In this document: piece after piece, positions 8,494 through 25,507 of the stretch
How the letters are laid out: every line of letters begins with the position of its first letter
Numbering within the stretch: the stretch's first letter is position 1
NCBI GenBank assembly: GCA_003165595.1
Contig: PLWQ01000003.1
Coordinates: forward strand, 1-41,957
Source of the DNA: Fibrobacterota bacterium
GTDB lineage: Bacteria; Fibrobacterota; Chitinivibrionia; Chitinivibrionales; FEN-1185
Length of the DNA stretch: 41,957 nt
Reading direction: 5' to 3'
Notes under the pieces: model-generated
Seen by the model: only the letters and a program-made list of their open reading frames with translations
What the model was told of the DNA's origin: nothing
Database searches by the model: none
Program-made: the position numbers and the translations under genes

Positions 8494-8510
8494 AAGAACC
8501 GCCTTGTTGT

Positions 8511-9994: not shown

Positions 9995-10073
9995 TGCAAA
10001 CAGCATACAGCATTTTCTGCAAACAGAAAATGTGCAAACAGGCAAAACAGGTATTTCCTGTTTGCTGTTTGCA
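9995..10073. repeat. Iteron cluster, possible replication origin
   Basis: The motif TGCAAACAG occurs at 9995-10003, 10018-10026 and 10033-10041, with a variant at 10042-10050. Its complement CTGTTTGC occurs at 10058-10065, and CTGTTTGCA at 10065-10073. The second copy lies in a 9-bp-stem palindrome, CATTTTCTG/CAGAAAATG, at 10011-10032. The cluster is in the 218-bp gap immediately 3' of the primase/helicase gene and 5' of the Cys/His-rich gene. In phage satellites of the PICI type the origin lies just 3' of the rep gene and has iterons, so an origin is a good guess. An operator for the downstream operon is the alternative. Confidence 0.6.
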
Positions 10074-10107
10074 ATTGTACTTAAGGGCTGCAAGCACACA
10101 GGAACAA

Positions 10108-11955
10108 CTAAGCGACGTGATAAACAGTGGCATTCTTGTTCCCTTTCGAGGTGGTCAGTTTGCGGGCAATTACCAACCGTTCAAGAGCATCAACAGTCCT
10201 GTTTCGGCCAAGTTGCCCAGCCACCGCAGCCCGTACTGCGCTTTGTGTTGCGCTTCCGTTCAATCCTTGCACGGTTGTAAAAACAAGATCATCATCACTG
10301 CCGGTGTTGGCTCCTGGCCTACCTGGCTTCTTTAGCGGCACACTGTCAAGCATCGGGTCAGCCGTATGTATGGGGTATCCCCATTGCAGAGATAAGGGGT
10401 CAGGTGTCTTAAATTCCCGAAGTGAAAATTCCATCCGGTAAGCATCATCGGATTCAAGGGCCGAAAGGGTGCATACCGCATCTACGTCACGCATGGGCGC
10501 GCCCGAACCGGCAATCCTATCTATTGCTTCCTTTGACGCTGCTAAACCTTTGGCAAAGTGGGAAATTATTATCGTGGAAAAGCCGTTTCGTGAAAAATAC
10601 CGGTCCAATTCACCGTACAAATAGCCCATCGCCACAGTGTCATTTTCTGAAAAGTTCCTGATTTCTGAGGACCGCAAGAGCTTATACTGTGGGTCAAGAA
10701 TCACGGTTGAAATGGCATGCCCATCAATCGCAGCAACAATGGAGGGAAATAGCTCTTCAATGTTTTGACCATAGCCCCGCAAATGATGATAGGCGATATT
10801 GTCGGGCATCGGCCAGCGTAAAGCATCCGCGACTGCCTGGACACGATGCAAGTATGATCCTTCGTCAATCTCGAAATTTGCAACGTATACGTTCCCTTTT
10901 TTACAAGGGAAACCAAGCCAATCATGCCCGGACGCGATAGCCAAGGCAAGCCGTATTGCAAGGAATGATTTACAGGCCTTCGAGGGAGCGCCAATAAGCA
11001 TTTTGTGGGATTGCCGGAGAATGCCGCAGATGAGTTCGGGCTTCCGTTCGGGTATGCCATTTTTGATATAGTGCGCGCCCCATACTATTTCCGGTAGGCT
11101 GCATGCTTCTTCCTGTTCTTGAAAAGCAGTGGGCCTTTGATTGTCCGTCAAACCCCTTGCATAGCCGTCCCTTGCTGCTTCACTGGCTTCTCGTGGATCA
11201 AGGCCGCACAATTGCGCGCCGCATTCGAGTAATTTCCGGGAAACCTTTTCTTGAATTCGTTTTTGTCCCATTTCCCGCGCTGCCGCGTAAAGGGCATTAT
11301 GCCTGCTGCCCGGTTCAACGAATCCGAGAAGACAATCAAGCGTTGCATTCGTTAAACTCGCGGGGACTTTTTGAGGAAGGATTGCAACCGCGTTTTCCCA
11401 CATCCCGCTTATGAAGGTGTCTCCTCCCGTCTCCGGGTTTGGATCGTTAGGAAGCCAAAACTGTGTGAGCTTTTCAGTCTTTGGAAAAAGCTCGATACGG
11501 TCTCTTCTGTTGAAGCCCCATGAGCGGATTATTCCCAAGAATTCTAAAACGTCCATCGGGCCGGGTAAGAGGAAAATTGCCCGTATTCCTCGACCGCTCT
11601 TGCTCTTGAATAAAACCGGTTCCGTTTGAAAAAAGCGCGCCGTTTTCGGCTGCAAATCAACGTTTGGTTTTTGTCCTTCATGGGCGTCAAAATCCAAGGC
11701 AAAATATGATACCTTTCCGGCTTGATGCGGCACAATACCAGGGCGAACTGGATGCGCAATTGTAAACTGTTTATCGTATTTGTTTCGGGTCACAAAGGAA
11801 ACGCTCGGCAATGTGCCGTGTTTCCAGCATTCAATGGCCTTTTGGCATTCCCCTTTTTTGTAGAGCCAACCGAAAACCAAATCGGCGTTTTGAAGGCAGA
11901 CTTTATCATCTTCCGACCAAGGAAGAAGTTTTTCGGCAAGCTGTAAACGGTCCAT
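10108..11955 (-). CDS. Primase/RepA-like helicase replication protein
   Basis: The roughly 615-residue protein appears to combine an N-terminal primase-polymerase-like region (FALDFDAHEG near residue 85, KSGRGIRAIF near 120) with an AAA_25/RepA-like hexameric helicase domain and a C-terminal winged-helix-like end. The Walker A segment near residues 322-330 reads GAPSKACKS, with cysteine where glycine is canonical; RepA-like relatives tolerate variation here. A Walker B-like TVILDPQYK follows. The ATG at 11955 lies just after the stop of the small HTH gene (TAGATATG) with AGGA six bases upstream; the ATG at 11970 is the alternative. It probably initiates autonomous replication of the excised element. 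Confidence 0.8.
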   Translation of the reverse strand: MDRLQLAEKLLPWSEDDKVCLQNADLVFGWLYKKGECQKAIECWKHGTLPSVSFVTRNKYDKQFTIAHPVRPGIVPHQAGKVSYFALDFDAHEGQKPNVDLQPKTARFFQTEPVLFKSKSGRGIRAIFLLPGPMDVLEFLGIIRSWGFNRRDRIELFPKTEKLTQFWLPNDPNPETGGDTFISGMWENAVAILPQKVPASLTNATLDCLLGFVEPGSRHNALYAAAREMGQKRIQEKVSRKLLECGAQLCGLDPREASEAARDGYARGLTDNQRPTAFQEQEEACSLPEIVWGAHYIKNGIPERKPELICGILRQSHKMLIGAPSKACKSFLAIRLALAIASGHDWLGFPCKKGNVYVANFEIDEGSYLHRVQAVADALRWPMPDNIAYHHLRGYGQNIEELFPSIVAAIDGHAISTVILDPQYKLLRSSEIRNFSENDTVAMGYLYGELDRYFSRNGFSTIIISHFAKGLAASKEAIDRIAGSGAPMRDVDAVCTLSALESDDAYRMEFSLREFKTPDPLSLQWGYPIHTADPMLDSVPLKKPGRPGANTGSDDDLVFTTVQGLNGSATQSAVRAAVAGQLGRNRTVDALERLVIARKLTTSKGNKNATVYHVA

Positions 11956-11957
11956 AT

Positions 11958-12176
11958 CTAGTCCTGGCATCCTACAATAGCCGTTAATTTTGAGGCTTCC
12001 GCATTGCTCATTGCTTTTTCAAGCTGGCGTCTTTCCTCACTTGTTAATACAATAAAACCATTCAGCTTTGAAGACGCCACGCCCGGCGCAACGCCTATGG
12101 CGTTTCCAATCTCTCGGTTAGTCCAATTCAAGCGGCGTTTACGTTCCAGAAGGTCCAGTTGACGTTGGTAAACCAT
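11958..12176 (-). CDS. Small HTH DNA-binding protein
   Basis: The roughly 72-residue protein has a Cro/C1-like helix-turn-helix appearance: LNWTNREIGNAIGVAPGVASSKLNG, followed by a helical tail. The ATG at 12176 (MVYQRQ) is preceded by GGAGG at five bases, much better than upstream ATGs at 12188 and 12194. Its stop nearly abuts the primase start, so the two form an operon. The 10-bp periodic repeats at 12266-12300 lie about 90 bp upstream of its start, in the probable promoter. An autoregulator or a replication accessory factor are the likely roles. Confidence 0.7.
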   Translation of the reverse strand: MVYQRQLDLLERKRRLNWTNREIGNAIGVAPGVASSKLNGFIVLTSEERRQLEKAMSNAEASKLTAIVGCQD

Positions 12177-12265
12177 CTTCACCTCCATTACCATTTACGA
12201 AACAATAAAAGGAAACGGCCTGTCGCATTCGTCTATAGAATACAACAAGCCGTAAGATAAAGCTT

Positions 12266-12300
12266 TGGTACCAAGTGGTATCAAATGGTATGAAATGGTA
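12266..12300. repeat. Four TGGTA repeats with exact 10-bp period
   Basis: TGGTA occurs at 12266-12270, 12276-12280, 12286-12290 and 12296-12300, with related intervening bases (AAG/AAA before each later copy). A 10-bp spacing puts every copy on the same DNA face, which suggests cooperative protein binding. The array is in the 136-bp gap upstream of the HTH-primase operon. It could be an operator for that operon or a second iteron set. Confidence 0.65.
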
Positions 12301-12312
12301 TGTTACATGAAT

Positions 12313-14574
12313 CTATTTCCTTTTCAGTTTATCCCATACTTTTTTCAGGTTGCTTTGATTACCATTGGAAAAGCTTGCGGCATCCTTTTGGCTCCAACCG
12401 CCCAAGCTTGCTACCTCATAGAAAAGTATTCGATATATCTCCGTTTTTTCAACTTGGTTTGACGAACACCAACCAAAGAATGTCTCCCATGAATCTGATG
12501 TTCTTTTTGATGCCGTTTGGCTGTTTGTTATTTCCGAATAAGTAATTTGTATCTTGTAAGGTAGCTTCGAACAGGATGGGTACTTCTTCTTGAAATTGTT
12601 GCGCCAAATGCTTTCTTCGGCTGCCTTCAGTCCCGGCGAATTATCCACAGCGGATTCTGTTGCTGCTTTCTGATTGGCTATTTGTTGCGCTTGTATTTCC
12701 ATGCGAACGCTTTCCATTTTTAAACGATCTATCCAAATTCCCGCTCTGTCTTTGTCGTCTCTGTTCATTGTCGAATAACATGACAGTATTGTTTCTCCGG
12801 CCATTTCGGAAAGAGATTTTCTATCAGATAAAACCTTGGCTTCTTGGGGTAGCACTTTCCTATTGTAAATAATATTCTTTCTCCCTGCCAGATATGTGAA
12901 CACCTCAAAGCCATCCTTCCCAGGTTCTCCAAGATAATAAACGCATCCTGTAGGAAATCCTCTCAAAAGGATTTCGTAATCTTCCTTTTTAGGAAGGAGA
13001 ACATCCGCCAGATTTTCAAGACCAGCAAATAGGGCAAGGTGGCTGCCGGTCAGAATTCCCTCAACAAGCCCCCTCAATCCGATATGAAAACATTGCTTTG
13101 TTTCCTCTGTATCATCAAGTTTTTCAAGAAACCTGTCAAGGTAGTGGCAAAGTGAATATTTCTTGCGTTCGTAATCTTGAAGTTCAATGCCATCCGTGTA
13201 TTGTCCAGGTTGATAGACTGAGCCGTTTATCACACGGTTTCTTCGGAAGGCATCAAGGTCTTTGGCAAGCTCCATTAGCGCCCTACCGTCATTGGTGTTC
13301 AATTCAGTTGTGTTGAGAACGTCAAGCAGTTTGTTCCAACTTCTTTCTTGCTCTTTACAGGCTTCTTGATAACCTTGCGCATAAGTTACGTGCTTGTCTT
13401 TGATTTCTATAAGCGATCTTCTATTGTTCCACGCTTCGTGCCACGCTTCATAGGGCTTTTTCAATCTCTGAAAGTCTGCTTTGACAAAGGCCGCCGCCAT
13501 GCCGTTGCCGCCCTCCGCTCTCGGCTCCGGCATGCCGTCCTGTTTCTGTGCATTCATGGCACCTAGCATTTCGGTTAATTGCATCCGCGCCTCGATGTCC
13601 AGCCTTCTCAGTCTTTCGTCCGCCACTTCCGCCGCGTTGGGAATACCCTGTTTCTCATATAATTCAATCAACATTTTTCTTTCAATCCGTTCCCGCTCTT
13701 TGAAGAAATCGTCTGTCTTTATCTTATCGGTATAGAATTGTATAAATGCTTCTTCGTCCTGCCACTCTGTGGCAACGCCATACCTTGACTCACGGACTAC
13801 CCTTTTCGCGTTTTCTTCTACTAATCGTTGCGTTTCAGCATGGTACTTCAGCAGGTCTTTTCTCAGGTCGTCTTCTGAGATTTCATGCCCAAAATCCGGA
13901 GGTTCTGTTTTCACAGAATTGTTGTCCGTTGTCGTCTTAGCCGTTGGAAACAATTCCGCGTTCCTTAGGTATTCATGAGCATTCTTGAATGTTTGCGGCT
14001 CAATTTTATTTTGCAATATCTGTGCAAATGGATTCTCGAAACCCAAAGCCCCGATTGTCTGCGTTTCCCTGTCTTGAATCCCGCCGAACGCGCCAGCAAG
14101 AATATCCTTGGGGCGCCGAACATCGAATAGTCTCCAATTGGATGGCGCTAGTATTCTGCCCTTATCGTCAAGTTCAGGATAGAAGATTACGTCTTGAATA
14201 GATTGTTCACCGTTGCGATAGAACCAGTGGCATTGCGCAAAAATGCCTTCAAATCCAAGGAAGTGATTGAATGGAATACTGAGCCTTTGAAAGGCCTTGA
14301 ATATTCGTTCAAGACCCCTTACTGTCAATTGCAAATTAGGCTGCACAATTCCGCCGCGAATTAATTTGAGGCTATTGAACCATTCCAAGTTCAAACCTCG
14401 AACCTCTACTACGTCGCAATCTTCTTGAGTGCATGCCAAGAGAGGGTTGAAACAGTTTTCTTTGCGCAATTGGCGGGTGTAAATACTGCGGTTTCTTTTA
14501 AGGAAATCACGGTCGATATCGGTAGGAATTACCAGCTCAACAGGACTCTTCTTTTGTTCCACTTCATTACTCAT
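12313..14574 (-). CDS. Unrecognised 753-residue protein
   Basis: I do not recognise a family. The protein has no signal peptide or transmembrane segment. The N-terminal 200 residues look globular and rich in aromatics. The middle (about 230-420) is strongly charged and helical, with a probable coiled coil. A more globular part follows (about 450-600), and the C-terminal end is basic. The gene ends 136 bp upstream of the small HTH gene and starts 108 bp after the FRG gene, on the same strand. It may belong either to the replication half or the defence half of the element. The ATG at 14574 has no clear ribosome site. Confidence 0.7.
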   Translation of the reverse strand: MSNEVEQKKSPVELVIPTDIDRDFLKRNRSIYTRQLRKENCFNPLLACTQEDCDVVEVRGLNLEWFNSLKLIRGGIVQPNLQLTVRGLERIFKAFQRLSIPFNHFLGFEGIFAQCHWFYRNGEQSIQDVIFYPELDDKGRILAPSNWRLFDVRRPKDILAGAFGGIQDRETQTIGALGFENPFAQILQNKIEPQTFKNAHEYLRNAELFPTAKTTTDNNSVKTEPPDFGHEISEDDLRKDLLKYHAETQRLVEENAKRVVRESRYGVATEWQDEEAFIQFYTDKIKTDDFFKERERIERKMLIELYEKQGIPNAAEVADERLRRLDIEARMQLTEMLGAMNAQKQDGMPEPRAEGGNGMAAAFVKADFQRLKKPYEAWHEAWNNRRSLIEIKDKHVTYAQGYQEACKEQERSWNKLLDVLNTTELNTNDGRALMELAKDLDAFRRNRVINGSVYQPGQYTDGIELQDYERKKYSLCHYLDRFLEKLDDTEETKQCFHIGLRGLVEGILTGSHLALFAGLENLADVLLPKKEDYEILLRGFPTGCVYYLGEPGKDGFEVFTYLAGRKNIIYNRKVLPQEAKVLSDRKSLSEMAGETILSCYSTMNRDDKDRAGIWIDRLKMESVRMEIQAQQIANQKAATESAVDNSPGLKAAEESIWRNNFKKKYPSCSKLPYKIQITYSEITNSQTASKRTSDSWETFFGWCSSNQVEKTEIYRILFYEVASLGGWSQKDAASFSNGNQSNLKKVWDKLKRK

Positions 14575-14682
14575 GATTCATAGTGCACAACCAAAGTGCC
14601 CATTTTCAAAATATTGCACGGAAAAATTGGGAGGCAGCTCGCAGCCTCTCTTGTTTCTTCGAGGGTAGTACCTTTCCGACAA

Positions 14683-15489
14683 CTAAACCCCTCTAGAGAC
14701 ATTGCCAAACCTGTAGGCATGAAAGAAGTCCATGGCAGCCTTTTCTTTGGTCCCGAATAACTTGTACCCAGAGATATTCATTAACATTAAATCAGTATAC
14801 ACTTCGGAAGTCCAATCAGGATGAATTGCATATGTAACGACGGACATATGAGATTTTCCAAAAGAATCCAACAAATGGCTCTGTTGCCTCAAGACTCTTT
14901 CGTGAATGTAAGGTGACACCTTTCTATTCCCAACTATTCTTTTCACCAGACGTGCCATAGCTAGGTTTTTGTGGTTGACGGCAGCTATCCCAGGAAATTT
15001 ACGTGGGTCATCGGTTTGAAGAGGTTTGTTATCGTAGAAAAGCGCAAAATATGCGGCAATATAGGGTGAAAGAGTAAAATCGATGAAATGAGTATTGATT
15101 TCATGATGTTGCATTTGCCAAATCAAGTGTATTGCCCGTTGATAAGCCTCATGTGGAGTTTTTGTCCCTTCAGGCAGTTCCTGATCTGCACTCTCGTCTT
15201 TGAGATGCCGACAATAGGTTCCTAGACATTCTTCGTTTAATGAGTGATTGCCATTGTCAAAAAGACCAGTCTCAACCATTTGCCTGTAGGCATTTACGTA
15301 GTACGTAGCCAAATCACCCATTTTTATTTGAACGAAATTTCTTTCCAAGGAGGAATTAAGTTCCCAGGAGATATTCTTGTGACCGCGGAACAGAAACCCG
15401 TTCAGATGATCTTGCAGCAGACGAGCCTTTAGTTCGGTCCACGAACCAAGATGCAGCAGTTCAATACTTGAACTTGAGGAAATGATCAT
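14683..15489 (-). CDS. FRG-domain protein
   Basis: The 268-residue protein carries an FRG domain: FLFRGHKN with the name-giving F34-R35-G36, then a characteristic QHHEINTHFIDFTLSPYIAAYFA segment around residues 125-150, and a C-terminal ISGYKLFGTKEKAAMDF part. FRG domains often occur in defence islands and toxin-like proteins; their biochemical activity is not firmly defined. The gene starts 41 bp after the Mod methyltransferase stop on the same strand, so it is likely part of the res-mod transcript. It may be an accessory effector or an independent defence gene that hitchhikes. The ATG at 15489 was used; no strong ribosome site is seen. Confidence 0.82.
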   Translation of the reverse strand: MIISSSSSIELLHLGSWTELKARLLQDHLNGFLFRGHKNISWELNSSLERNFVQIKMGDLATYYVNAYRQMVETGLFDNGNHSLNEECLGTYCRHLKDESADQELPEGTKTPHEAYQRAIHLIWQMQHHEINTHFIDFTLSPYIAAYFALFYDNKPLQTDDPRKFPGIAAVNHKNLAMARLVKRIVGNRKVSPYIHERVLRQQSHLLDSFGKSHMSVVTYAIHPDWTSEVYTDLMLMNISGYKLFGTKEKAAMDFFHAYRFGNVSRGV

Positions 15490-15530
15490 GGAATTATTTC
15501 AGGCCCTTTCTCAGCTTTGCATCATGAAAT

Positions 15531-18146
15531 TCACATCGCAAACACCTTCAAAACTTCATCCCCGTAATGGTTAATCACCTTCACAGCAATCTTCCCCGTC
15601 TCGGGCTTGTCAAAAGGACGGCTTTCTGTGCTGTATAGGCTTGACCAAGCCGCCTCGTCGATCTCGGCCCGAAGGGCGCGCTTGAGCTTATCATAGGGCT
15701 CTTCGGCACCGGTAAAATAGGCATGCCGGACAAAAAAGCTTTCGCCGTTATAATTGGTGTCAATGAACCAACAGGCAATGTCATCCGTAGAAGAAGACCG
15801 GACTTCGCCGGTTGTCGGGTCGTAAACGTCAAGCCCTTTTATGGTTGCGACGATCTGTCCGCCTTTTTGTTTCTTTATCTCGACATCGGGCTCACCAAAG
15901 ACCATAAACAGATTGCCCGCGCCGGTCTTCTTGAGAAGTTCGTCACCCATTGCCAGGTCGGGATTCATGCGAGCAGCCAGGACAGTAAGTTTCCCGTAAC
16001 GTTTGGCCTCTTCGGATACGTGCGGATCAAAGGCAAAGCCGCACATGAGGAGAAGATCGTACCCGACACCCTGCACGGCTTCCTTTGCCGCTTCCTTGAC
16101 CTGCATCGGGCCGACTGTCCCCTGCTCTGGGCCTATGGATACCGCAACCCGCTTTGATTTCCCGGCTGCATCCGTGTATTCTCCGGTTGCGTGAATCCAG
16201 GTTCCGGCAAAAGGATTCAGGCTATCGAATTTCAACCGTTCGCTCTTCTTGGTGTTTTGGACGCCTGCCTTGCGAAGGTTTTCAAGGATCATGGAAGTAA
16301 AATCTTGGTGCTTTTGGGCTTCCTTTTCCGATACTGTGCCGTCCATGTTTTCGTCGGCAGTGGAAAGGACACGGTGAGGCGAAAGGCTTTCCACAGTGAG
16401 CGGGCCGGAAACGCGAACGGTCTTATTGTCTTCATACGGTTGGTCGAAAAGAGTTTCCGTGTCAGCGTGCCGGGAAATGGCCTCGTCAATCTGTTTTCGG
16501 GTTATGCCTGCCTTGATGTCCGGGTTATTGGCGATTGATTTCAAGGTGACGTGCGGCACTCTCTTGTAAACAAAGCCTTTTCGAATATCGTTGTCAGTCG
16601 GGTATGACGGCGGTATCTTCCCGGTGATTTCTGCTTCCTTCTTTATACCTTCGGGAGAATCGGCAAGGTAGTAAAACGGGAAGCGCGCCGCCATGAGGCG
16701 CGTTCGCGCGAGCGCCAGGGCAACGCGCGACGTGTCGCAGGTGATCCAGCGGCGGCCCCACTGCTCGGCGACATAGGCGGTTGAACCGCTTCCGCAAGTT
16801 GGATCAAGAACTAAATCGCCTGGATCGGTAGTCATTAAAAGACAGCGCTCGATAACTTGCGGAGAAGTTTGAACAACATACGTCTTTTCGTATGAGACGC
16901 CCACATCAGGCCATAGGTTAGTGATTTTTCTATAGGGGAAATCTTCGTGATATAGGCGATAACTAAGACTTTTTCCTTCTACCTGCACCCTACCCACGAA
17001 TGCAAGCTTGTCGAGCTTTTCCTTATTGACAACCCAAGAGCCACCGCTTGGTGGTGGATAATTTTTACCCTGAAATTTATAATCGAATGCTGTTTGTGGT
17101 GAAAAAGAAGGTGCAATTAAGGAGAAAAGACGAAAAAGTCGCGTACCTGACAATGATTGGATTCCATTGAACTCCGCAGGATCGAATTTTTTGATCGTTC
17201 CATCTGAATATTCGGCATACCTCCAATGCGCCGTAAGATCATCCATGTATTGATATAGTGGCCTGTACTTGACATGCTCAATGTCCTTTGCATAGAAAAG
17301 AATGTGGTCATGCATTGTTTCAAGCAATGCGGCACCAAGGGGAAGGCTTTTCTTGCGAAAGACAATATTGGCAACGAAGTTTTCGCTTCCAAACACTTCA
17401 TCAAGAAGGGATGCAACCAGATGGCTGTTTTCTGAATTTATTTGCACAAAAACGCTTCCTGTCTCCGTCAGCAATTCCCTAGCTGCAACCAGTCTGTCAC
17501 GTAGATATGCCAAATACGAATGTATCCCCAATTTCCATGTATCCCTGAACGCCCGTACCTGCTCCGGCTGCCTTGTCGCATCCTCAGCCTTCCCGTCCTT
17601 CACGTCCCTCTTTCTCGTGCTCACTTGCCAATTCGAGCCGAACTTTATTCCATACGGCGGGTCAAAATAAATCGTCTGCACCGACCCCTTGAGCCCTTCC
17701 TTTTCGGCCAAACTTGTCATCACAAGAAGCGAATCCCCAAGAATCATACGGTTTGACCAATGGCCCTCGTGCTTGTAAAAGTCTACGCGCTGGTCAAAAT
17801 CTGCCGGTAAGCCGTTGAAGTCTCCGAAAAGGTCTATTTGGTTGTCTGCCGGTTTCTCCATGCGTGGTAGAGAATCTATGATGGCTTGCGGATGAATTTT
17901 TTCCTGAATGTAGATGGGTACCACGGGAACGGCAAGGTCAGCCGCGTCCTGTTCGTCCTTACCTTTCCACACAAGCTGCGGATCAAGAGAAGGGTCGCGC
18001 GGGTAAAGCATGGCCTTGGGGGTGGCTTCGTCTTCGGCAACAAAGTCGCGTAGTTCCTCGGTGGGTATGTTCACTCGTCCATCTTTGTGCCGGATGGATT
18101 CAATCGCTACGCCTTCGGCAATTTTCTTTTCTTTGCTCTTGGGCAT
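15531..18146 (-). CDS. Type III-like DNA methyltransferase (Mod)
   Basis: This is the modification and sequence-recognition subunit expected to protect host DNA by adenine or cytosine amino-methylation. The order of motifs is that of a beta-class methyltransferase: DPPYGIKFGSNW (motif IV) first and DPTCGSGSTAYVAEQWGRRW (motif I) later. At about 871 residues it is longer than many type III Mod proteins, because of a C-terminal region of roughly 350 residues after the catalytic domain. The ATG at 18146 (MPKSKEK) has AAAGGTG upstream and overlaps no coding motif; the frame opens earlier, to 18254, inside res. It begins one base after the res stop, indicating tight coupling. Confidence 0.9.
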   Translation of the reverse strand: MPKSKEKKIAEGVAIESIRHKDGRVNIPTEELRDFVAEDEATPKAMLYPRDPSLDPQLVWKGKDEQDAADLAVPVVPIYIQEKIHPQAIIDSLPRMEKPADNQIDLFGDFNGLPADFDQRVDFYKHEGHWSNRMILGDSLLVMTSLAEKEGLKGSVQTIYFDPPYGIKFGSNWQVSTRKRDVKDGKAEDATRQPEQVRAFRDTWKLGIHSYLAYLRDRLVAARELLTETGSVFVQINSENSHLVASLLDEVFGSENFVANIVFRKKSLPLGAALLETMHDHILFYAKDIEHVKYRPLYQYMDDLTAHWRYAEYSDGTIKKFDPAEFNGIQSLSGTRLFRLFSLIAPSFSPQTAFDYKFQGKNYPPPSGGSWVVNKEKLDKLAFVGRVQVEGKSLSYRLYHEDFPYRKITNLWPDVGVSYEKTYVVQTSPQVIERCLLMTTDPGDLVLDPTCGSGSTAYVAEQWGRRWITCDTSRVALALARTRLMAARFPFYYLADSPEGIKKEAEITGKIPPSYPTDNDIRKGFVYKRVPHVTLKSIANNPDIKAGITRKQIDEAISRHADTETLFDQPYEDNKTVRVSGPLTVESLSPHRVLSTADENMDGTVSEKEAQKHQDFTSMILENLRKAGVQNTKKSERLKFDSLNPFAGTWIHATGEYTDAAGKSKRVAVSIGPEQGTVGPMQVKEAAKEAVQGVGYDLLLMCGFAFDPHVSEEAKRYGKLTVLAARMNPDLAMGDELLKKTGAGNLFMVFGEPDVEIKKQKGGQIVATIKGLDVYDPTTGEVRSSSTDDIACWFIDTNYNGESFFVRHAYFTGAEEPYDKLKRALRAEIDEAAWSSLYSTESRPFDKPETGKIAVKVINHYGDEVLKVFAM

Positions 18147-18147
18147 C

Positions 18148-21147
18148 TCACGCACCTTTTGTTTGTTTCGATTTCTCACGCACCCACCCTCGAATCTGGT
18201 TCGCCGCGTTCCACGGATCAAGAACCTCGATAATATCCCACCTGCCAAAGCCACCGTGATTATTGACCGCAGGAACCCATAGCGTTTGGGCCGTTGTAAC
18301 CTTGGCTGCTTTGTCTTTTCTCTTTTCCCCTGTCACTTCGATAATAAGTTGCAAAGGGTCGGCAGGGCCTTTTCCATCGTCTATACAGGCGATAAAATCA
18401 GGCTCATAGTTGCTTTCTTCACCATTCAGCGTATAGGGGATATTGAACCCAAGGCTTTTGTTGTTCTTGGCATATCGGATGACTTCGGGCATGTCTTCGA
18501 GCGTTTGGGAAAGTTTCTGCTCCCAGGAATCGGTGTCCGCGACAACATGCGAAACGTGGCATTTGTCTGCGCGCGTGGAAAAGGTCGGGCGTGTGGTGTC
18601 AAAATCAACGTAGCTGGTGGAGCCAAGCGTATCGTATGGCCGGAGAATCGGCTTCAAGGCGGGCGTATCCCCTGCGGATTGCACGATAGCCTTGTAGATT
18701 CGGTCTGCGGCATCATGAGCGAATTCGACAAGAAGAAGGAGTTGTGGGAATGTGTTGTCTTTGAGCGTGACGCACTCGTCAAGCCATCGTTTGGAAATAA
18801 CAAGTAGCTGTGGGAACAGCCAAGGCTTGTCGTTACCCTCATCATCACGGAAATATTTTTCAAGTGTCAATTTTGCGAGTAGAAACGCTACTTCGTTTGG
18901 TCGCCGCCTCTTGAGGTCTTCGAGTGTGTGAATGCTTGTTTCCCCCACTATCGGGGCATTTTCCGTTTTCGTCGGGATATCAGCCGTGGAAAGGGTAAGC
19001 TTTGAATCTTTTGTGAACGTCGCGGAAAGCCGTTCGCTCAACAAGTCGTAACGGTAGCCCATAAGGCGCGGAAACACTATTTCGGCGCTCTTACGGTTGT
19101 CCAATGCCCTAACCCGTGTCGGCTGCGGGCCTGGTTTTGGGTCTTTCGTGGAACCGCTACAGGGAATAAACGAGAATGGAACGCCATAGACTTCGGCATA
19201 TTCCGGCGAGAAAAAACCGTTTTCATCAGCCGCGTAGCTCATGCGACGAAGGGCGCGCCCGACAACCTGTTCACAAAGCAATTGCGTACCAAAGGCGCGC
19301 ACTCCCAGAACATGCGTGACCGTATTTGCATCCCACCCTTCGGTGAGCATAGACACGCTTACAACGCATTTTACGTGTTCTCCCAGCTTGCCCGCTTTTC
19401 CCACGGTATTCATCACCTCACGAAGCAAATCTTCGTCGGTGAGGCTGTCGGCATCACGTCCGGGAAATCGTATCCGGTATTCGGCCTTGAATTCCTCGAC
19501 TTCGTGGACGGCGATTTTCTTGAATTCGTCGCTCATGGCCTCGCCGGATTCCAATTGTGTGCTGTCAACCAGGATTGTATTGGGCCTTTGGAGCCAGCCG
19601 CCTTTCCCGTCGTCGTTTCGGAAAATTGGAAGTTGTCCGGCTTGGACAATGATTTTCTCTTTGATAGGTTTTTCCCAGCCAGCTACATAATCGTAAACCA
19701 GCTTCGAAACGTTGGTGTTATTGCAAACGACAATGAACACGGGCGGTGTAATTCCCTTGGCGCGGGCTTTGGTGTTTTTCTCCCAGAGCTTGTAATACTT
19801 TTCGTAGTTGCTGTAAAGGCTGTGTAGCGCTCCCTGAAGCTCGGCAGGAAGCTTCGGCTCTCCGCTGATCGAATCTGTCCTTCGGCCTTTCTTCGGCAAA
19901 TCCTCGCGTATCCGCAGCCATAAATCACGGTAGGTAGGCTGGTCGCCGGTCATCGAATCGTCACTCACCGGCACTCTTGGCACCTTGACTATGCCGGATT
20001 CGATGGCCTCGATCAATGAGAAATCGCTGATAACCCATGGGAAGAGTGTACCTTCAGGATTCCCGGAGCCTCGAAGGAAAAACGGCGTTGCCGACAAGTC
20101 GTAAACATTTTTCACCCCGATTTTGGCCTTCACAGACTCTATACCGTTTATCCAAACGCGGGCTTCCTCTTCCCGTTTCTGTGCTTCCTTGCGGTCATCA
20201 CCCTTCAATTCTTCGTCTACCGCATCAGGCTTTCGACGGTAGCAATGGTGGGCCTCGTCGTTGATAACGATAATGTTCTTTTTGTTCCCAAGTTCGCGGC
20301 ACACGCGCCGCACCATTTGATCCGGCGTTTCTGTAAATGCTCCTGCCGGGCCGCCGTCGGCCAAAATCTGCTTTGTAATCTTTCCCGCCGCGACCTTCTC
20401 CCGGAGCTGGAGCGCGTGAAAGTTCGTGATAATGATTTTGGCCTGACAGAGTTGTTCAATGGACTGAGCCGGAATAATATCGCGCTGCCGGTAATAATTC
20501 TGCGGATCGTTTGGAAGGAGAACGCGCAATCGGTCCCGAATGGTGATTCCTGGGGTGATGATAAGAAAAGTGTCCGAAAATCGGGCATCCTGCGGGTTTG
20601 CCAGCTTGTTTAAGGTGTTCCAGGCGATAGCCATTGCCATGACAACCGTTTTACCGGAGCCCGTGGCCATCTTGAACGCCATGCGCGGCAAGCCGGAATT
20701 CCAAACGTCATTTTCTTTTCTGATTGTGTTTTCAATCCAAGAATCGCCGAATTTCCGGGCCACTTCCGTTATGTAAATTACTGTTTCAAGGGCTTCTATT
20801 TGGCAAAAGAAAAGTTTCTTTTCTCTCTGCGGATCGTTCCAATAAGCAAGGAGGCGCGCCGTTGTTGGCGTAACCCCGCTATACCCACCCTTCCGCCAGG
20901 GCGAAATGCGGGACCGGATTTGATTTACAAGCTTGTTCTCCTCTATGCGGTCTTGCGTCCATTCCGTGTCGAATGACAACTGCTGCGGGTTTCTATTCCT
21001 TGGGCGCGCTATGGGGACGAAATACGAGCTTGGCCTGCGGCCATCCAGGGTTTCGTCGGTAATGCCGTCATTGGAGAACTTGAAATAGCGGTCAGGCTCC
21101 CGGAATGCGGAGCATATTACGGGGTTTTCAATGACTGTTTGGCTCAT
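18148..21147 (-). CDS. Type III-like restriction subunit (Res), DEAD/DEAH helicase-nuclease
   Basis: This is the helicase-nuclease partner of Mod. The roughly 999-residue protein has Walker A MATGSGKT near residues 160-167, a DEAH-type box in VINDEAHHCY, the DLSATPF motif and a C-terminal helicase part with GRALRR. The end contains a PD-(D/E)XK-like nuclease signature, NYEPDFIACI followed by LIIEVTGEKRKDK. The ATG at 21147 (MSQTVIENP) is preferred over a TTG at 21177. A C-terminal overlap with the start of mod indicates one transcript. Between this gene and the C39-like peptidase lies a short truncated R-M-like fragment in the same reading frame. Confidence 0.9.
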   Translation of the reverse strand: MSQTVIENPVICSAFREPDRYFKFSNDGITDETLDGRRPSSYFVPIARPRNRNPQQLSFDTEWTQDRIEENKLVNQIRSRISPWRKGGYSGVTPTTARLLAYWNDPQREKKLFFCQIEALETVIYITEVARKFGDSWIENTIRKENDVWNSGLPRMAFKMATGSGKTVVMAMAIAWNTLNKLANPQDARFSDTFLIITPGITIRDRLRVLLPNDPQNYYRQRDIIPAQSIEQLCQAKIIITNFHALQLREKVAAGKITKQILADGGPAGAFTETPDQMVRRVCRELGNKKNIIVINDEAHHCYRRKPDAVDEELKGDDRKEAQKREEEARVWINGIESVKAKIGVKNVYDLSATPFFLRGSGNPEGTLFPWVISDFSLIEAIESGIVKVPRVPVSDDSMTGDQPTYRDLWLRIREDLPKKGRRTDSISGEPKLPAELQGALHSLYSNYEKYYKLWEKNTKARAKGITPPVFIVVCNNTNVSKLVYDYVAGWEKPIKEKIIVQAGQLPIFRNDDGKGGWLQRPNTILVDSTQLESGEAMSDEFKKIAVHEVEEFKAEYRIRFPGRDADSLTDEDLLREVMNTVGKAGKLGEHVKCVVSVSMLTEGWDANTVTHVLGVRAFGTQLLCEQVVGRALRRMSYAADENGFFSPEYAEVYGVPFSFIPCSGSTKDPKPGPQPTRVRALDNRKSAEIVFPRLMGYRYDLLSERLSATFTKDSKLTLSTADIPTKTENAPIVGETSIHTLEDLKRRRPNEVAFLLAKLTLEKYFRDDEGNDKPWLFPQLLVISKRWLDECVTLKDNTFPQLLLLVEFAHDAADRIYKAIVQSAGDTPALKPILRPYDTLGSTSYVDFDTTRPTFSTRADKCHVSHVVADTDSWEQKLSQTLEDMPEVIRYAKNNKSLGFNIPYTLNGEESNYEPDFIACIDDGKGPADPLQLIIEVTGEKRKDKAAKVTTAQTLWVPAVNNHGGFGRWDIIEVLDPWNAANQIRGWVREKSKQTKGA

Positions 21148-21210
21148 AGGTAAAAAAATACGAAAGTGTTGGAGCAAAACAAAGAAACGTGCTTGGAAAA
21201 TTGGAACGGC

Positions 21211-21369
21211 TCAAATCGCACCGAATGCAATAAGAAAGTTGTCTATGAAGTCGTGCCGGGCGGATTGTTCGGAATAGGCAGGGGTGAGGTGGTAATCTTT
21301 GTTGCCGTCAAAATCTTCGACAAGCTTCTTGACGATGTTGAAGGCCGATTCAAGAGAGGTTTGGAGCAT
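21211..21369 (-). pseudogene. Truncated N-terminus of an Eco57I-like R-M protein
   Basis: A 52-residue frame begins five bases after the C39-like gene stop. It includes KLVEDFDGNKDYHL and YSEQSARHDFIDNFL, closely resembling the extreme N-terminus of Eco57I/type IIG-like restriction-methylases, where a FID-x-F segment normally leads into a GW-D motif. Here the match stops at AFGAI and a TGA follows. The frame then stays open into res without a match to the res family. I infer a deletion scar of an earlier R-M gene. A real small ORF is the alternative, as there is no strong ribosome site. Confidence 0.55.
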
Positions 21370-21374
21370 TTGAC

Positions 21375-22946
21375 TTATTTTAGATGTCGATAAAGGTGCT
21401 TTGAAGGAGGATCTTCCGTACTGATTTCCTTGTAAATTAGTCCCTTGGACTTATTCCTTTCAAATATGATACCCGGAACATGAATTGACAAAAAACAAGT
21501 ATCAAACCTCGGGTCGCTGGTAGGATCAATTAAGACTTCGCCAAGTTTCAACCTTGCGTAACAAAAAATAGGAGGGGTACTCAATTCCACAACCCATAGG
21601 GAATCGGGAAGTTCCATCGCCTTGTAGCAGGCCATGACTTCTTTGTTAGTGTCTGGCGACAGTGAATCCAAGAAGTCATCCTTCTTTGACAAATACGTTC
21701 TTAGAACAAGCTGCTGATTCTCCATGGCGACAATCATCGCACCTAGCCAGTACACGTTCAACGGAAAATCTTTTGCCTTCACCTTGCAATGAGTCTTCAT
21801 CATCTCACGCATGACATCCTGCGATATTGCATCAAAAGCAATCTTTTCCGCCTCATCCCCAGCGTTAAACACCAACTTTGACAGCGGTGCTATTATGCAA
21901 TTTGTAGTATTGCCTCTCAATATGGAAGAAGGAACAAACAAGTATGGGCCGAGATTGTCATCTTGAACGATAAAGTTTTGTATCCAGTTTGTGCTCAGGT
22001 GGTAGGGGCCGCTCTTGGGGATGCCATAGTAAAGAGTTTCTACCTGGGACCACCAGTAATCTGGATTAAATGTATGTCCCACTACAACGAGTGCATGGCC
22101 TTGTGAGGCGGTATTTATTCCTATTATTACAGGAATACCTGATTCAATAAACCGGTAGATTATTTGCTCAGGATGGACAGTAAGCATTAGTTCTTCTTGT
22201 CTTGTCAGTGAAAAGTCATATGCCATTGGATTAAAACCCATCTCTTCCATCGCCAACCTGATTTGGATGATGTTTAATCCATTGCTGGGCAGATGCCTTT
22301 GCCCCTGGGCATTCGGGCTTCTGGACACTGTCTGGGTAACTGCTGGTGCAGAATAGGCCTTTTCAATTTTCTTGTTGAGGAAGAAATATTGCGAAATAAT
22401 GCTCAGTGCCGCTTGTGCGCAAACCGCAATCCTTCCGTCTTGCTGCAAATACGGGAATCCGCAAACTTCCAATTCCACATTGCACAATTTGAATTTCTTG
22501 TGGGCAAGGCACGTGAAGAATACAAATCTTGTTGCAGAATCAATTGCAAGCTTCTGTGAGACAAGAGCATCTGATATGGTTTTGTAGGGCTCTGGCCTTA
22601 TCGTGCAGTAGCCGAGATAGGACTTTGCACTTTCCTGCAAAGTCTTATCCTGGGCTTTCTCGAATTCATCTTTTGTAAACATGGAGGAAAAGAAATGCAA
22701 CTTCTTACATTTGGCTTTGGGGTCGCAAAAGAATACTTGCTTGTAAAACATGTCATATTCTGCCACGTACTCATCGTCCTCATAGTCATTTTCAACTAGA
22801 ATTGTCTTGCACTTGTGCTCAGAGGCTTCGATCATGCTCAATATTCTTGTTAGTGGGAATCGTCTTTTCTCGATTTGGCTGCCATATTGGGTGCCGATAT
22901 CCAGAAAATCGCGGATAGTTTTGGGGTTGATTACTTCAAAACTCAT
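21375..22946 (-). CDS. C39-like cysteine peptidase
   Basis: The 523-residue protein appears to be a papain-fold C39-like peptidase. The catalytic triad candidates are C176 in AVCAQAALS, H284 in QGHALVVVGH and D329/D330 in QDDNLGPY, in the right order and spacing. An N-terminal region of about 170 residues precedes the peptidase part, and a C-terminal region of about 190 residues follows; neither is recognised. No signal peptide or membrane segment is seen, so it is unlike C39 bacteriocin transporters and is probably cytoplasmic. An AGGAG lies nine bases before the ATG at 22946. Upstream on the same strand are two small genes, with a hairpin at 22971-22998 between. A role as a defence effector is inferred. 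Confidence 0.72.
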   Translation of the reverse strand: MSFEVINPKTIRDFLDIGTQYGSQIEKRRFPLTRILSMIEASEHKCKTILVENDYEDDEYVAEYDMFYKQVFFCDPKAKCKKLHFFSSMFTKDEFEKAQDKTLQESAKSYLGYCTIRPEPYKTISDALVSQKLAIDSATRFVFFTCLAHKKFKLCNVELEVCGFPYLQQDGRIAVCAQAALSIISQYFFLNKKIEKAYSAPAVTQTVSRSPNAQGQRHLPSNGLNIIQIRLAMEEMGFNPMAYDFSLTRQEELMLTVHPEQIIYRFIESGIPVIIGINTASQGHALVVVGHTFNPDYWWSQVETLYYGIPKSGPYHLSTNWIQNFIVQDDNLGPYLFVPSSILRGNTTNCIIAPLSKLVFNAGDEAEKIAFDAISQDVMREMMKTHCKVKAKDFPLNVYWLGAMIVAMENQQLVLRTYLSKKDDFLDSLSPDTNKEVMACYKAMELPDSLWVVELSTPPIFCYARLKLGEVLIDPTSDPRFDTCFLSIHVPGIIFERNKSKGLIYKEISTEDPPSKHLYRHLK

Positions 22947-22970
22947 GTCGTTTGTCTCCTAAAATACAAA

Positions 22971-22998
22971 GGGGAGAACATCAAAAGAAGTTCTCCCC
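22971..22998 (-). terminator. Hairpin between the small genes and the peptidase gene
   Basis: A perfect 9-bp stem, GGGGAGAAC/GTTCTCCCC, encloses a 10-base loop and is followed on the minus strand by TTTGTATTTT. It lies in the 75-bp gap between the 64-residue gene and the peptidase gene. It could be an intrinsic terminator or attenuator that limits read-through into the peptidase gene; the T tract is imperfect. Confidence 0.6.
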
Positions 22999-23021
22999 TA
23001 ATATACAAATTGCTGTTTCGA

Positions 23022-23216
23022 TCAAAAAGCGAAATTCGTTGACGACAAAGATTTCTCTCTCCAATTAGACATGTCGATAGCAAACTTGTTTATTTTCCTC
23101 TGGCAATCCATTTCGACAGAGTTCCTTACTTCTCTGTCAATTTCAATGACTTTTTCCTTTTTTTCGAGCCTCTCGGAAAAATCTTTCAAAAAGACATCCT
23201 CTTTGCCCTCACTCAT
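23022..23216 (-). CDS. Small charged protein, 64 residues
   Basis: The protein is highly charged and predicted helical (lysine- and glutamate-rich first half), with no recognisable domain. The start at 23216 is supported by GGAGG five bases upstream, and it overlaps the stop of the 98-residue gene by four bases (ATGA). It lies 75 bp upstream of the C39-like peptidase. It could be a regulator, inhibitor or substrate of the peptidase, but this rests only on position. Confidence 0.6.
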   Translation of the reverse strand: MSEGKEDVFLKDFSERLEKKEKVIEIDREVRNSVEMDCQRKINKFAIDMSNWREKSLSSTNFAF

Positions 23217-23509
23217 GACAGCCTCCGTTTTATGAATACGATAATGTAGGTCGTTTTATTACCCATGGATGGTGGAAACAAAATGTGTAGAGACTCCTGG
23301 CAAATCAATAATAAATTAATACCCTTGCCGCTGTCAAGTTTTTTGAACCTCCACACATTTCTTGGCACTTTTTTTCTTGCAAATGCCGTTCCAGTGATGT
23401 AAAATAGTTCAAGCCTGCGTGGTTTGCACCTCGGGTATTTGACCTTCACCGGAAATGACTCTTCAACCACATGATTTTTATCGGTACCCATAGGCCTTTG
23501 CTTTAGCAT
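23213..23509 (-). CDS. Small basic protein, 98 residues
   Basis: I do not recognise the family. The protein is basic and looks beta-rich in the middle (LELFYITGTAF, NVWRFKKL), with a hydrophobic C-terminal segment NLLLICQESLHILF. The start could be the ATG at 23509 or the one at 23491, which has AAAGG just upstream. It is the first gene of a minus-strand group: 98-residue protein, 64-residue protein, hairpin, C39-like peptidase. Confidence 0.5.
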   Translation of the reverse strand: MLKQRPMGTDKNHVVEESFPVKVKYPRCKPRRLELFYITGTAFARKKVPRNVWRFKKLDSGKGINLLLICQESLHILFPPSMGNKTTYIIVFIKRRLS

Positions 23510-23870
23510 GCCATCAAGCCGATTTCCTTCATTCGCTTGCTCGCATGATCAGGATTCTCAATTTTGTTCCCACATGCGAGAATTCTAGCATATGATCAGA
23601 TTAGAGATACCAACGAACCCTGTACGTGTCCGGTCGAGAAATCCCCAAGACCCTAAACACAATCTTGGCATGGTAGGCCTTTGGGGGGTCCGTTTCAAAG
23701 CGTGGCGACGCCTTCTAAGAAAGCCGGACCGTTGTTGACCCAGCGCGCGTCCCCGCAATATCACAGTGGAATCAATTCCCAACTCAGCAAAGAACAGAAG
23801 GCGGGCTAGGACAGATGGAGCCTTCTAATGTTACGGTTTAAGGGCAGGAATCCTCTTCAATTTTAGGTTT
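23510..23870. other. Divergent non-coding region with repeats
   Basis: About 360 bp separate the minus-strand peptidase group from the plus-strand PIN-like gene. An 8-bp inverted repeat, CTCGCATG at 23540-23547 and CATGCGAG at 23573-23580, with repeated TGATCA nearby, lies upstream of the 98-residue gene and may be an operator. The rest (23600-23830) has no codon structure or homology I can recognise. Confidence 0.4.
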
Positions 23871-23876
23871 TTGATT

Positions 23877-24920
23877 ATGGTACATTTGGATACAAACGCC
23901 ATCTCCATTCTGGCCAGTAATGAAGACCTACAAAGTGCTTTTTTTGACTACTTGTCAAGAACAAACGAGGCGCTAATACTTAACTATTTTCAGATGATGG
24001 AATTAATAAAATCTTCGGATTCAGCTCGCGTAAACGAAAGAATTTCATTTTTGCGGAAAGCTCCACGGAAGAGGCTATTAGTGCCGACTCTCATTGAAGT
24101 CGTTTTTCATGAGATAGCGGATTTTTATTTGCTGGACAGAACATTGTCCAAGGAAGAATTTAGGGAAAAGTATACCATCATCATCGAGTCAAACGATGAA
24201 ATGGCCTATCTGGCAAATACTGCATCGGCGGTGTGGGATAATGTTCGGGATTCTTTCCACGCCAGCATAGGAGGAGATATCTTCAGCAAAGTAGTATCCC
24301 AGTACAAGACCGGAATAAGCAAATTAAGGGTAAGGGATTTCGTAAAACCCAAACCCAATCCAAGACATCCGCTCTTTGACAAACGTGACGCAGAACGCCA
24401 TTTTGACAGGTTCGCTCCCGACAAATCAGATACCACTGTGTTTTGTCAATACATGAATCAAGTACGAAGGATGGAGGATGCTGGGTATGATGAACTAATT
24501 CGATTTATTGAAAACTCTATGCAGGAATTCTATTTTCCCAACGAGGTATGGGATTGGAAGATAAAGAAGTTTATGGAACAGGCGTATTTTATGCGCCGGG
24601 CGCGACATGCACTCCGTTTTTTTCCGGATTCAGAGGGAATTTCAGAGACGTTTTTCAAGAAGATTAACACATGCGATTTATCTTGTTGTCCAAGTTTCTT
24701 TATTTCAAGAAAGCTGATGCAGTACCTGAATGATAGACCTACAGTAACCAAACCATCAGATTCTTTCGACATATTTTACGCAGGGCTTTTGCCGTATGTC
24801 GATGTTTATACTTGCGACAATGAAATTGCTTCAGCCTTAACACAAATAATAAGATCCAACAGGCTGGAAAAGGACCGATTCAATTATTATACCCTCACCG
24901 ACTTTCGGAATTTCTTCTAA
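23877..24920 (+). CDS. Large PIN-like nuclease domain protein
   Basis: The protein of about 348 residues starts with VHLDTNAIS, the acidic strand typical of PIN nucleases, and near its C-terminus has DSFDIFYAGLLPYVDVYTCDNEIASAL, which fits the distal PIN strand with conserved acidic residues. The central 200 residues are a helical insertion unlike short VapC toxins. It probably acts as an RNase, perhaps as a defence toxin, but no antitoxin gene is seen beside it. The ATG at 23877 is preferred over a TTG at 23871. It is convergent with nothing and is the last gene of the element before the right end. Confidence 0.65.
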   Translation: MVHLDTNAISILASNEDLQSAFFDYLSRTNEALILNYFQMMELIKSSDSARVNERISFLRKAPRKRLLVPTLIEVVFHEIADFYLLDRTLSKEEFREKYTIIIESNDEMAYLANTASAVWDNVRDSFHASIGGDIFSKVVSQYKTGISKLRVRDFVKPKPNPRHPLFDKRDAERHFDRFAPDKSDTTVFCQYMNQVRRMEDAGYDELIRFIENSMQEFYFPNEVWDWKIKKFMEQAYFMRRARHALRFFPDSEGISETFFKKINTCDLSCCPSFFISRKLMQYLNDRPTVTKPSDSFDIFYAGLLPYVDVYTCDNEIASALTQIIRSNRLEKDRFNYYTLTDFRNFF

Positions 24921-25302
24921 GAAGGTTCTTCTATTCCCGGCGTGTCAGGTACGCGTGCTAAGTTTTACTAGGTTTTCTGTTTCACCCGCCTGCGGATGCG
25001 TAACCAATACGCGCGCGTACCTTGCCCGATCCGTCACACGGTCGGTTCTTTCTTCCCTCGCGCGCGTGTATCGTAGCTGAATATTCCCGCATCAACAACC
25101 CGTGTCCAGCCTAAGAGTACGCTAGAACATACGCCCTATGGTGACAGAAGCCCGGATCGCCGCCGGGGTGTAACAAGATGCCGCGGGGCCCATCTTCGCT
25201 GCCTGGCGCGCGCGTGCGCGGCAATTGATCTTTGGAAACCGCAAATTGAACTATGCTTTGTGTGATGATACTCATGGATTGTTTTTGAAGTGGTTTTTCG
25301 GG
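24921..25302. other. Non-coding stretch with CG-rich patch
   Basis: No gene can be supported here. The stretch from about 24940 to 25220 is rich in C+G, with repeated GCGCGC-type tracts, in contrast to the A+T-rich genes around it. An open minus-strand frame (25111-25347) has no protein-like features. Confidence 0.4.
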
Positions 25303-25352
25303 CAAGTGTACCAATAAGTGTACCAATTCACTGGTACAGTGTACCAATTTTC
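25303..25352 (+). repeat. Right arm-type integrase repeats
   Basis: Three direct copies of AGTGTACCAAT occur, at about 25305-25315, 25317-25327 and 25338-25348, and the last is preceded by an inverted half site. They lie about 104-152 bp inside the right att core, in the same orientation as the pair at 4960-4981. I infer arm-type binding sites for the integrase. Confidence 0.6.
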
Positions 25353-25456
25353 AGGGTATTTGATACTATTTTGTAGAGAAGTGAGGCAATGCGGAGAGAA
25401 TAGAAAAGACCTTTTAAAACGCTGTTTTCATAGGGAGAAGTTGGAAGGGAGAAAAA

Positions 25457-25507
25457 TGCCAGCGCAGAGATTCGAACTCCGGACAAGTGGATTATGATTC
25501 CACTGCT
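25457..25507 (-). repeat. Right att repeat, within the intact tRNA
   Basis: These 51 bp are identical to 4856-4906 and form the anticodon arm through the discriminator base of the intact tRNA gene. The sequence beyond the 3' end is element DNA (T-rich), without CCA. Confidence 0.95.

What the first reader, a model, noticed from the sequence alone, without database searches (positions are those of the whole stretch)
21375..23509. C39-like cytoplasmic peptidase with two tiny upstream genes and an attenuator-like hairpin
The 98- and 64-residue genes overlap by ATGA, then a perfect 9-bp hairpin lies just before the peptidase gene. Cysteine triad residues C176, H284 and D329/330 are in place, but there is no transporter or secretion context. 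This layout would fit a peptidase held in check by, or acting on, a small partner, as in protease-based toxin or abortive-infection systems.
Basis: partly seen in the sequence, partly recalled or inferred. Interest (0 to 1): 0.6.

Follow-up and report, generated by a model that had tools for sequence, protein, structure and literature searches.

The report
Guarded protease gene pair in defence islands
A cytoplasmic papain-like protease is always found beside one tiny gene in phage-defence islands of many bacterial phyla, often with a transcription stop signal between the two, which suggests a protease weapon kept in check by a small partner made in excess.

Summary
The peptidase (21375-22946, -) and the 64-aa gene (23022-23216, -) form a conserved two-gene module. 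I found relatives in about 70 loci from many bacterial phyla, plasmids and prophages. Every locus with an intact peptidase and enough flank carries a 43-67 aa gene next to it. That gene is under purifying selection and ends in a family-wide hydrophobic-x-hydrophobic tail. The catalytic residues are invariant in the 46 peptidases I aligned. The hairpin is a 10-bp intrinsic-terminator-like structure; 30 of 51 non-redundant loci with the small gene upstream have a strong terminator just before the peptidase start, against 15 of 337 control genes. The 98-aa ORF is probably not a gene: no clear homologues, and the window's only near-consensus sigma-70 promoter lies inside it. Neighbours are defence genes, and one copy is the only large cargo of the known P2-prophage defence hotspot. 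Best reading: a papain-like protease effector restrained by a small partner whose tail docks on the protease, with the terminator keeping partner in excess. I found no published description. No toxicity or phage test exists. An E. coli version has lost its catalytic Cys and His.

The parts
21375..22946 (-). Papain-like cysteine peptidase (523 aa): N-terminal domain about 1-130, papain-fold catalytic core about 138-360, C-terminal domain about 410-475
   Evidence: PF13529 Peptidase_C39_2, E 0.0023, below the gathering score; catalytic residues invariant in 46 homologues; AF2 model pLDDT 75.6, pTM 0.82; fold matches staphopain Z 14.4, phytochelatin synthase Z 14.0, ComA C39 domain Z 13.6
22970..22999 (-). 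Perfect 10-bp hairpin with U-rich tail (UUUGUAUUUU just after it on the coding strand), an intrinsic-terminator-like element between small gene and peptidase
   Evidence: Only such hairpin in the window; z = -4.2; same element in the same place in 30 of 51 relatives with the small gene upstream versus 15 of 337 control genes
23022..23216 (-). 64-aa small partner gene with strong Shine-Dalgarno (GGAGG) and C-terminal tail ...NFAF
   Evidence: Homologue beside the peptidase in G017 (L013, BLASTP E 9e-5); a 43-67 aa counterpart in every evaluable relative; dN/dS about 0.04-0.43 in close pairs
23308..23337 (-). Near-consensus sigma-70 promoter TTGACA-18-TATTAT, probably drives the small gene
   Evidence: 11 of 12 match, the only one in the window; 0.08 expected per 2.8 kb
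23213..23509 (-). 98-aa ORF, probably not a gene
   Evidence: No Pfam or PADLOC match, no plasmid match and only weak matches in the phylum; contains the promoter above; absent from the other loci
4856..25507 (.). About 20.6-kb integrative island that carries the module, with a tyrosine integrase at 4891-6000 (-)
   Evidence: 51-bp exact direct repeat at 4856 and 25457, the latter inside tRNA-Met 25456-25531; island GC 0.467 versus 0.58-0.59 outside; Phage_integrase E 1.4e-13

Best explanation
The 64-aa gene and the peptidase form a mobile two-gene defence module that works like a toxin-antitoxin pair. A promoter drives the small gene. Most transcripts stop at the hairpin, so the small protein is made in excess, and occasional read-through makes a little protease. 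The small protein is helical, and its conserved hydrophobic C-terminal tail docks on the papain-like protease, probably in its substrate cleft, and keeps it inactive. Phage infection upsets the balance, for example by loss of the small protein, by a phage component that displaces it, or by changed termination. The freed protease then cleaves host or phage proteins and stops the infection. Shown here by sequence: the conserved pair, coding selection on the small gene, invariant catalytic residues, terminator, promoter-like site, defence-island and prophage-hotspot location. Indirect only: docking of the tail (one fused AF2 model). Inferred: inhibition, the trigger, the targets, and abortive infection.
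For: Small gene beside the peptidase in every evaluable locus over many phyla. dN/dS about 0.04-0.43. Tail hydrophobic-x-hydrophobic in 48 of 54 versus 28 of 337 control genes. Terminator abutting the peptidase start in 30 of 51 versus 15 of 337, with different hairpin sequences that keep pairing. The terminator label needs at least two changes on the tree. Q169, C176, H284, D329 and D330 invariant in 46. In a fused small-protein-plus-peptidase model of a relative (L036), the small protein is predicted with pLDDT about 80-86 and the tail residues T56-C57 are assigned strand, although the small protein has no other strand. Alignments of that model to zymogens and to Xylellain begin at residues 49-52, near the tail. 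Neighbours are RM (RmrA), Gabija, PARIS AriA, BREX PglX, E1-E2 and DRT genes. In L079 the pair lies between gpA and the portal gene of a P2-like prophage, the defence hotspot of Rousset 2022 (PMC9122126). Precedents: staphostatin and Spi inhibitors co-transcribed with papain-like proteases (PMC3462683); antitoxin-terminator-toxin order in type III TA and AbiF (PMC5086642, PMC12373285).
Against: No experiment. No coordinates or PAE were available for the fused model, so the docking site is not seen, and the fusion itself restrains the tail. The small ORFs were partly chosen by eye, which inflates the tail count. A terminator is missing in many relatives where the genes are close or overlap. In L010, L012, L013 and L059 the small gene is downstream, so excess of the partner cannot always come from termination. 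Defence location is guilt by association. The E. coli copy lacks catalytic Cys and His, so protease activity is not kept in every copy.
Confidence: 0.47

Rival explanations
1. The small protein is the substrate, not the inhibitor. Phage infection activates the protease (its N- and C-terminal domains would be the sensor) and it cuts the small protein, whose product is the toxic or signalling effector, in the manner of protease-activated gasdermins or Craspase-Csx30. The tail is the recognition site, and the small gene is expressed in excess because it is the substrate of an enzyme.
For: Same data: invariant catalytic residues, conserved tail that seems to meet the protease, partner expressed in excess through the terminator. 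Precedent of protease-activated bacterial effectors (recalled, and mentioned in PMC12805718).
Against: The small protein has no predicted pore-forming or catalytic feature and no shared family. Conservation sits at the very C-terminus, so a cut there would release only a few residues.
Confidence: 0.25
2. The hairpin is a regulated attenuator: infection or stress promotes read-through of the terminator and so switches on the peptidase, while the small protein is mainly a regulator or chaperone.
For: The terminator is placed 0-30 nt before the start codon, in several clades without a Shine-Dalgarno sequence, and appeared or was lost at least twice.
Against: Many relatives have no terminator and overlapping or coupled genes. 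No Rfam element was found.
Confidence: 0.12
3. A C39-type leader-peptide processing pair: the small protein is a bacteriocin-like precursor and the peptidase trims it.
For: C39-like fold and small ORF next to it.
Against: No Gly-Gly processing motif in the small proteins, no ABC transporter or exporter in the window neighbourhood, defence-gene surroundings.
Confidence: 0.04
4. A cytoplasmic housekeeping or island-maintenance protease with a chaperone-like partner, carried as passenger or addiction module on mobile elements and not antiviral.
For: No phage test exists. Patchy distribution, 5 of 167 genomes in the phylum and 20 of 5,426 E. coli genomes, would also fit an addiction module.
Against: Recurrent placement beside many unrelated defence systems and in the P2-prophage defence hotspot.
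Confidence: 0.12

Closest known systems
Staphopain-staphostatin and SpeB-Spi (papain-like proteases with co-transcribed dedicated inhibitors)
   Same: Best structural match of the catalytic core is staphopain (Z 14.4, 158 residues, rmsd 3.1); small partner encoded next to the protease, up- or downstream, as in Bacteroides C10 proteases (PMC3462683)
   Different: Those proteases are secreted virulence enzymes. Staphostatins are about 110-aa beta proteins, whereas here the partner is a 43-67 aa helical protein with a conserved C-terminal tail and the pair lies in defence islands
Type III toxin-antitoxin systems (ToxIN, TenpIN, CptIN) and AbiF
   Same: Antitoxin, then intrinsic terminator, then toxin on one transcript (PMC5086642, PMC12373285); carried on mobile elements
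   Different: The first gene is a protein under purifying selection, not an RNA; there is no repeat array and no Rfam match; the effector is a protease, not an RNase
Peptidase family C39 / Pfam Peptidase_C39_2
   Same: Papain-like fold, Gln-Cys-His-Asp catalytic set; 14 of 46 members match PF13529, best E 7.2e-7
   Different: The window protein is below the Pfam gathering score (19 versus 24 bits); large extra N- and C-terminal domains; no transporter, no double-glycine leader
Protease-based bacterial immunity (Craspase, bacterial gasdermin proteases, Lit)
   Same: A protease as the presumed effector or activator in a defence setting
   Different: Different protease clan or sensor. The PADLOC and PHROGs scans of this protein gave no match

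Membership tests
Papain-like cysteine peptidase (clan CA) | Gln-Cys-His-Asp/Asn catalytic set in papain order | tested here: met
   Q169, C176, H284, D329/D330 invariant in 46 homologues
Papain-like cysteine peptidase (clan CA) | Papain-like fold of the core | tested here: met
   Model residues 138-355, Z 14.4 to staphopain C, rmsd 3.1 over 158 residues
Pfam Peptidase_C39_2 (PF13529) | Score at or above the curated gathering cut-off | tested here: not met
   19.0 versus 24 bits for the window protein; other members reach E 7.2e-7
C39 bacteriocin-processing peptidases | Fused or adjacent ABC exporter and double-glycine leader substrate | tested here: not met
   No exporter in the window neighbourhood; no Gly-Gly motif near the end of the small proteins
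Type II toxin-antitoxin system | Small antitoxin gene next to a toxin gene in one unit | tested here: met
   Small gene directly beside the peptidase in all evaluable loci
Type II toxin-antitoxin system | Toxicity neutralised by direct binding of the partner | not testable with these tools
   Needs expression and pull-down; a fused model only hints at docking
Type II toxin-antitoxin system | DNA-binding domain of the antitoxin for autoregulation | tested here: inconclusive
   No Pfam family shared by the 52 small proteins; many type II antitoxins also lack one
Type III toxin-antitoxin system | Intrinsic terminator between antitoxin and toxin | tested here: met
   Window hairpin and 30 of 51 relatives
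Type III toxin-antitoxin system | RNA antitoxin made of tandem repeats | tested here: not met
   No repeat array in 22960-23510, no Rfam match, small gene is protein-coding
Staphostatin-type inhibitor | About 110-aa beta-barrel inhibitor of a secreted protease | tested here: not met
   Partner is 43-67 aa and helical in the model (helices 3-14, 18-45, 50-54); PMC3462683 for the staphostatin type
Known anti-phage systems in PADLOC-DB 2.0.0 | Match of the peptidase or small protein to a PADLOC model | tested here: not met
   0 families at E up to 1 for both

The most novel reading that the evidence does not exclude
A previously undescribed class of immunity in which a papain-like protease is the effector and a small C-terminal-tail protein, overproduced through a terminator placed before the protease gene, is both its inhibitor and the sensor of infection: phage action on the tail or on transcription termination frees the protease. 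It would be a protein-antitoxin counterpart of type III TA with a protease as toxin.
Probability: 0.3. Interest if true: 0.85.

Novelty: new variant of a known kind. Interest (0 to 1): 0.7.

Why it matters
If right, this is a widespread but unannotated defence module (many bacterial phyla, plasmids, prophages) whose effector is a papain-like protease. Its tiny partner is annotated 'hypothetical protein' or nothing at all. It would give a bacterial case of protease-inhibitor control in immunity. It also comes with ready tests: a conserved short tail to mutate, a catalytic Cys, a terminator to delete, and a natural catalytic-dead E. coli copy with an altered tail as a comparison.

Tried and rejected
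(1) The 98-aa ORF as a second partner: no plasmid match, only weak scattered matches in the phylum, and none beside any other peptidase; the promoter lies inside it. (2) Bacteriocin or leader-peptide processing: no Gly-Gly, no exporter. (3) An RNA antitoxin: no repeats, no Rfam match, coding selection on the small gene. (4) A single-protein scan of genome contigs and viral contigs with the window peptidase found nothing; an 8-row profile had no stretch conserved enough; a 3-row profile from plasmid relatives worked. (5) Isolated phage genomes: no match. (6) Sequence search of solved structures gave only weak phytochelatin-synthase matches, E about 0.2. (7) A weak XopV-like NCBIfam hint (3 of 46 members, best E 0.012) was not pursued. 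(9) Literature searches found no description of the pair; the library holds open-licence papers only, so this is weak evidence of novelty.

Full report
What is there. On the - strand the window holds a 523-aa peptidase ORF (21375-22946), a 64-aa ORF (23022-23216) and a 98-aa ORF (23213-23509) that overlaps the 64-aa ORF by ATGA. Between the 64-aa gene and the peptidase is a 75-nt gap with a perfect 10-bp hairpin (22970-22999), followed on the coding strand by UUUGUAUUUU and then AGGAG and the peptidase start. It is the only perfect hairpin of 10 bp or more with a loop of 3-12 in the 42-kb window, and the gap folds at -22.8 kcal/mol (z = -4.2). The module lies in a 20.6-kb island bounded by a 51-bp direct repeat (4856 and 25457), one copy of which is the end of tRNA-Met 25456-25531. 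The island has a tyrosine integrase and other defence genes: a type III restriction-modification pair and an FRG-domain gene.

The peptidase. Pfam gives only a sub-threshold match to Peptidase_C39_2. An alignment of 46 relatives keeps Q169, C176, H284, D329 and D330 invariant. The AF2 model (pLDDT 75.6, pTM 0.82) has a papain-like core at about 138-360. The closest solved folds are staphopains (Z 14.4), phytochelatin synthase (Z 14.0) and C39 domains such as ComA (Z 13.6). The papain-like nature is therefore firm; 'C39' is one of several equally near relatives.

The relatives. Profile searches gave relatives in the same phylum (5 of 167 genomes), on plasmids, in 63 loci of genome contigs over many phyla and in three viral contigs. 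In every locus with an intact peptidase and enough flank there is a 43-67 aa ORF next to it. It is upstream in most, and downstream in L010, L013 and L059 and in L012, where it is cut by the contig end. Loci that could not be judged (L073, L075, L080) are truncated or broken. The small ORF of L013 matches the window's 64-aa protein (BLASTP E 9e-5), although gene order is reversed there, so the link is not an accident of overlap. Close pairs show dN/dS of about 0.04-0.43, so the small gene codes for a protein. The small proteins share little sequence but end in a tail, typically L-[AS]-[RK]-[TS]-[CYF]-[ST]-L; hydrophobic-x-hydrophobic in 48 of 54 versus 28 of 337 control genes. The window's ends NFAF. 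Caveat: the small ORFs were picked partly by eye, which inflates the tail count; the dN/dS test does not depend on the tail.

The hairpin. A strong terminator whose 3' end lies just before the peptidase start is present in 30 of 51 non-redundant relatives with the small gene upstream, against 15 of 337 control genes from the same loci. The stems differ in sequence but keep pairing (GCAGCC/GGCTGC, AGCGACC/GGTCGCT, AGCAACC/GGTTGCT, GGGCGAC/GTCGCCC, GGGGAGAAC/GTTCTCCCC), and on the tree the feature needs at least two gains or losses. In many Proteobacteria the start codon follows the U-tract with no Shine-Dalgarno sequence. The arrangement small gene, terminator, effector is the one that sets antitoxin over toxin in type III TA systems and AbiF (PMC5086642, PMC12373285). 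Here the first gene is a protein: no repeats, no Rfam family.

The 98-aa ORF. It has no family match, no plasmid match and only weak scattered matches in the phylum, and no counterpart was seen in the other loci. The only 11-of-12 sigma-70 promoter match in the whole window (TTGACA-18-TATTAT, 23337-23308) lies inside it, about 90 nt before the 64-aa start. I take it as the promoter of the pair and the 98-aa ORF as spurious.

Contact between the two proteins. The natural in-frame read-through of small gene, gap and peptidase of a relative (L036) was folded as one chain with paired rows. The small part is predicted at pLDDT about 80-86 as two long helices and a short one, and the tail residues T56-C57 are assigned strand although the small protein has no other strand, so the strand must pair with the peptidase or the linker. 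Several zymogen and Xylellain alignments of this model start at residues 49-52, near the tail. No coordinates or PAE are available, so a tail in the active-site cleft is a reasonable but unproven reading.

Setting. Flanking genes match RmrA, GajA/GajB, E1-E2, RTasHel, capP, AriA, PglX and other PADLOC families. In L079 the pair is the only large cargo between gpA and the portal gene of a P2-like prophage, the place that Rousset et al. 2022 describe as the P2 defence hotspot (PMC9122126). In 20 of 5,426 E. coli genomes a copy exists, and the two I read sit in a tRNA-Pro island beside an ABC-three-component system. The copy read in full has lost the catalytic Cys and His (both Tyr), and the small protein's tail ends SYEA where relatives have SYSL. 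This single case suggests a link between tail and active site. Six relatives with intact catalytic residues also lack the usual tail, so it is only suggestive.

Conclusion. The conserved pair is close to certain (about 0.95), a role in defence is likely (about 0.75), and inhibition by the small protein is the best but undecided mechanism (about 0.5 against about 0.25 for the substrate model). I found no published description in the library available here. Inhibitor-guarded papain-like proteases and terminator-separated TA pairs are both known kinds, so I file it as a new variant of a known kind.

Noticed in passing
L094:8763-11052 (E. coli W2-5; 20 of 5,426 E. coli genomes have a match): Family member with both catalytic Cys and His replaced by Tyr but an intact ORF, terminator kept, and the small protein's tail changed from SYSL to SYEA.
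   Followed up: partly
L079:5790-8088: The pair is the only large cargo between gpA and the portal gene of a P2-like prophage, the known P2 defence hotspot.
   Followed up: yes
window 7555-8493 (-): One ORF with an N-terminal SLOG/DprA-like domain (ShosA-like, E 1.8e-11) and a weak C-terminal phosphoribosyltransferase match (ShosT-like, E 0.02): possibly a natural fusion of a ShosTA/PsyrTA-type pair.
   Followed up: no
window 4856-4906 and 25457-25507: 51-bp exact direct repeat at the tRNA-Met gene: att sites of a 20.6-kb integrative island with a tyrosine integrase.
   Followed up: partly
window 6685-7410 (+): Trypsin-like protease gene in the same island, weakly like LmuA and RT-associated proteases in PADLOC.
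   Followed up: no
window 23871-24920 (+): 349-aa protein with a PIN-like N-terminus (VHLDTNAISIL) and no Pfam or PADLOC match, divergent from the peptidase pair.
   Followed up: no
window 25800-26251 (+): HicB-like and HicA-like pair just outside the island, beside the tRNA (HicA E 1.3e-7).
   Followed up: no
L007 and L014: Both plasmid relatives lie beside a multiubiquitin / ThiF (E1-like) operon, in Mesorhizobium and Pseudomonas aeruginosa.
   Followed up: no
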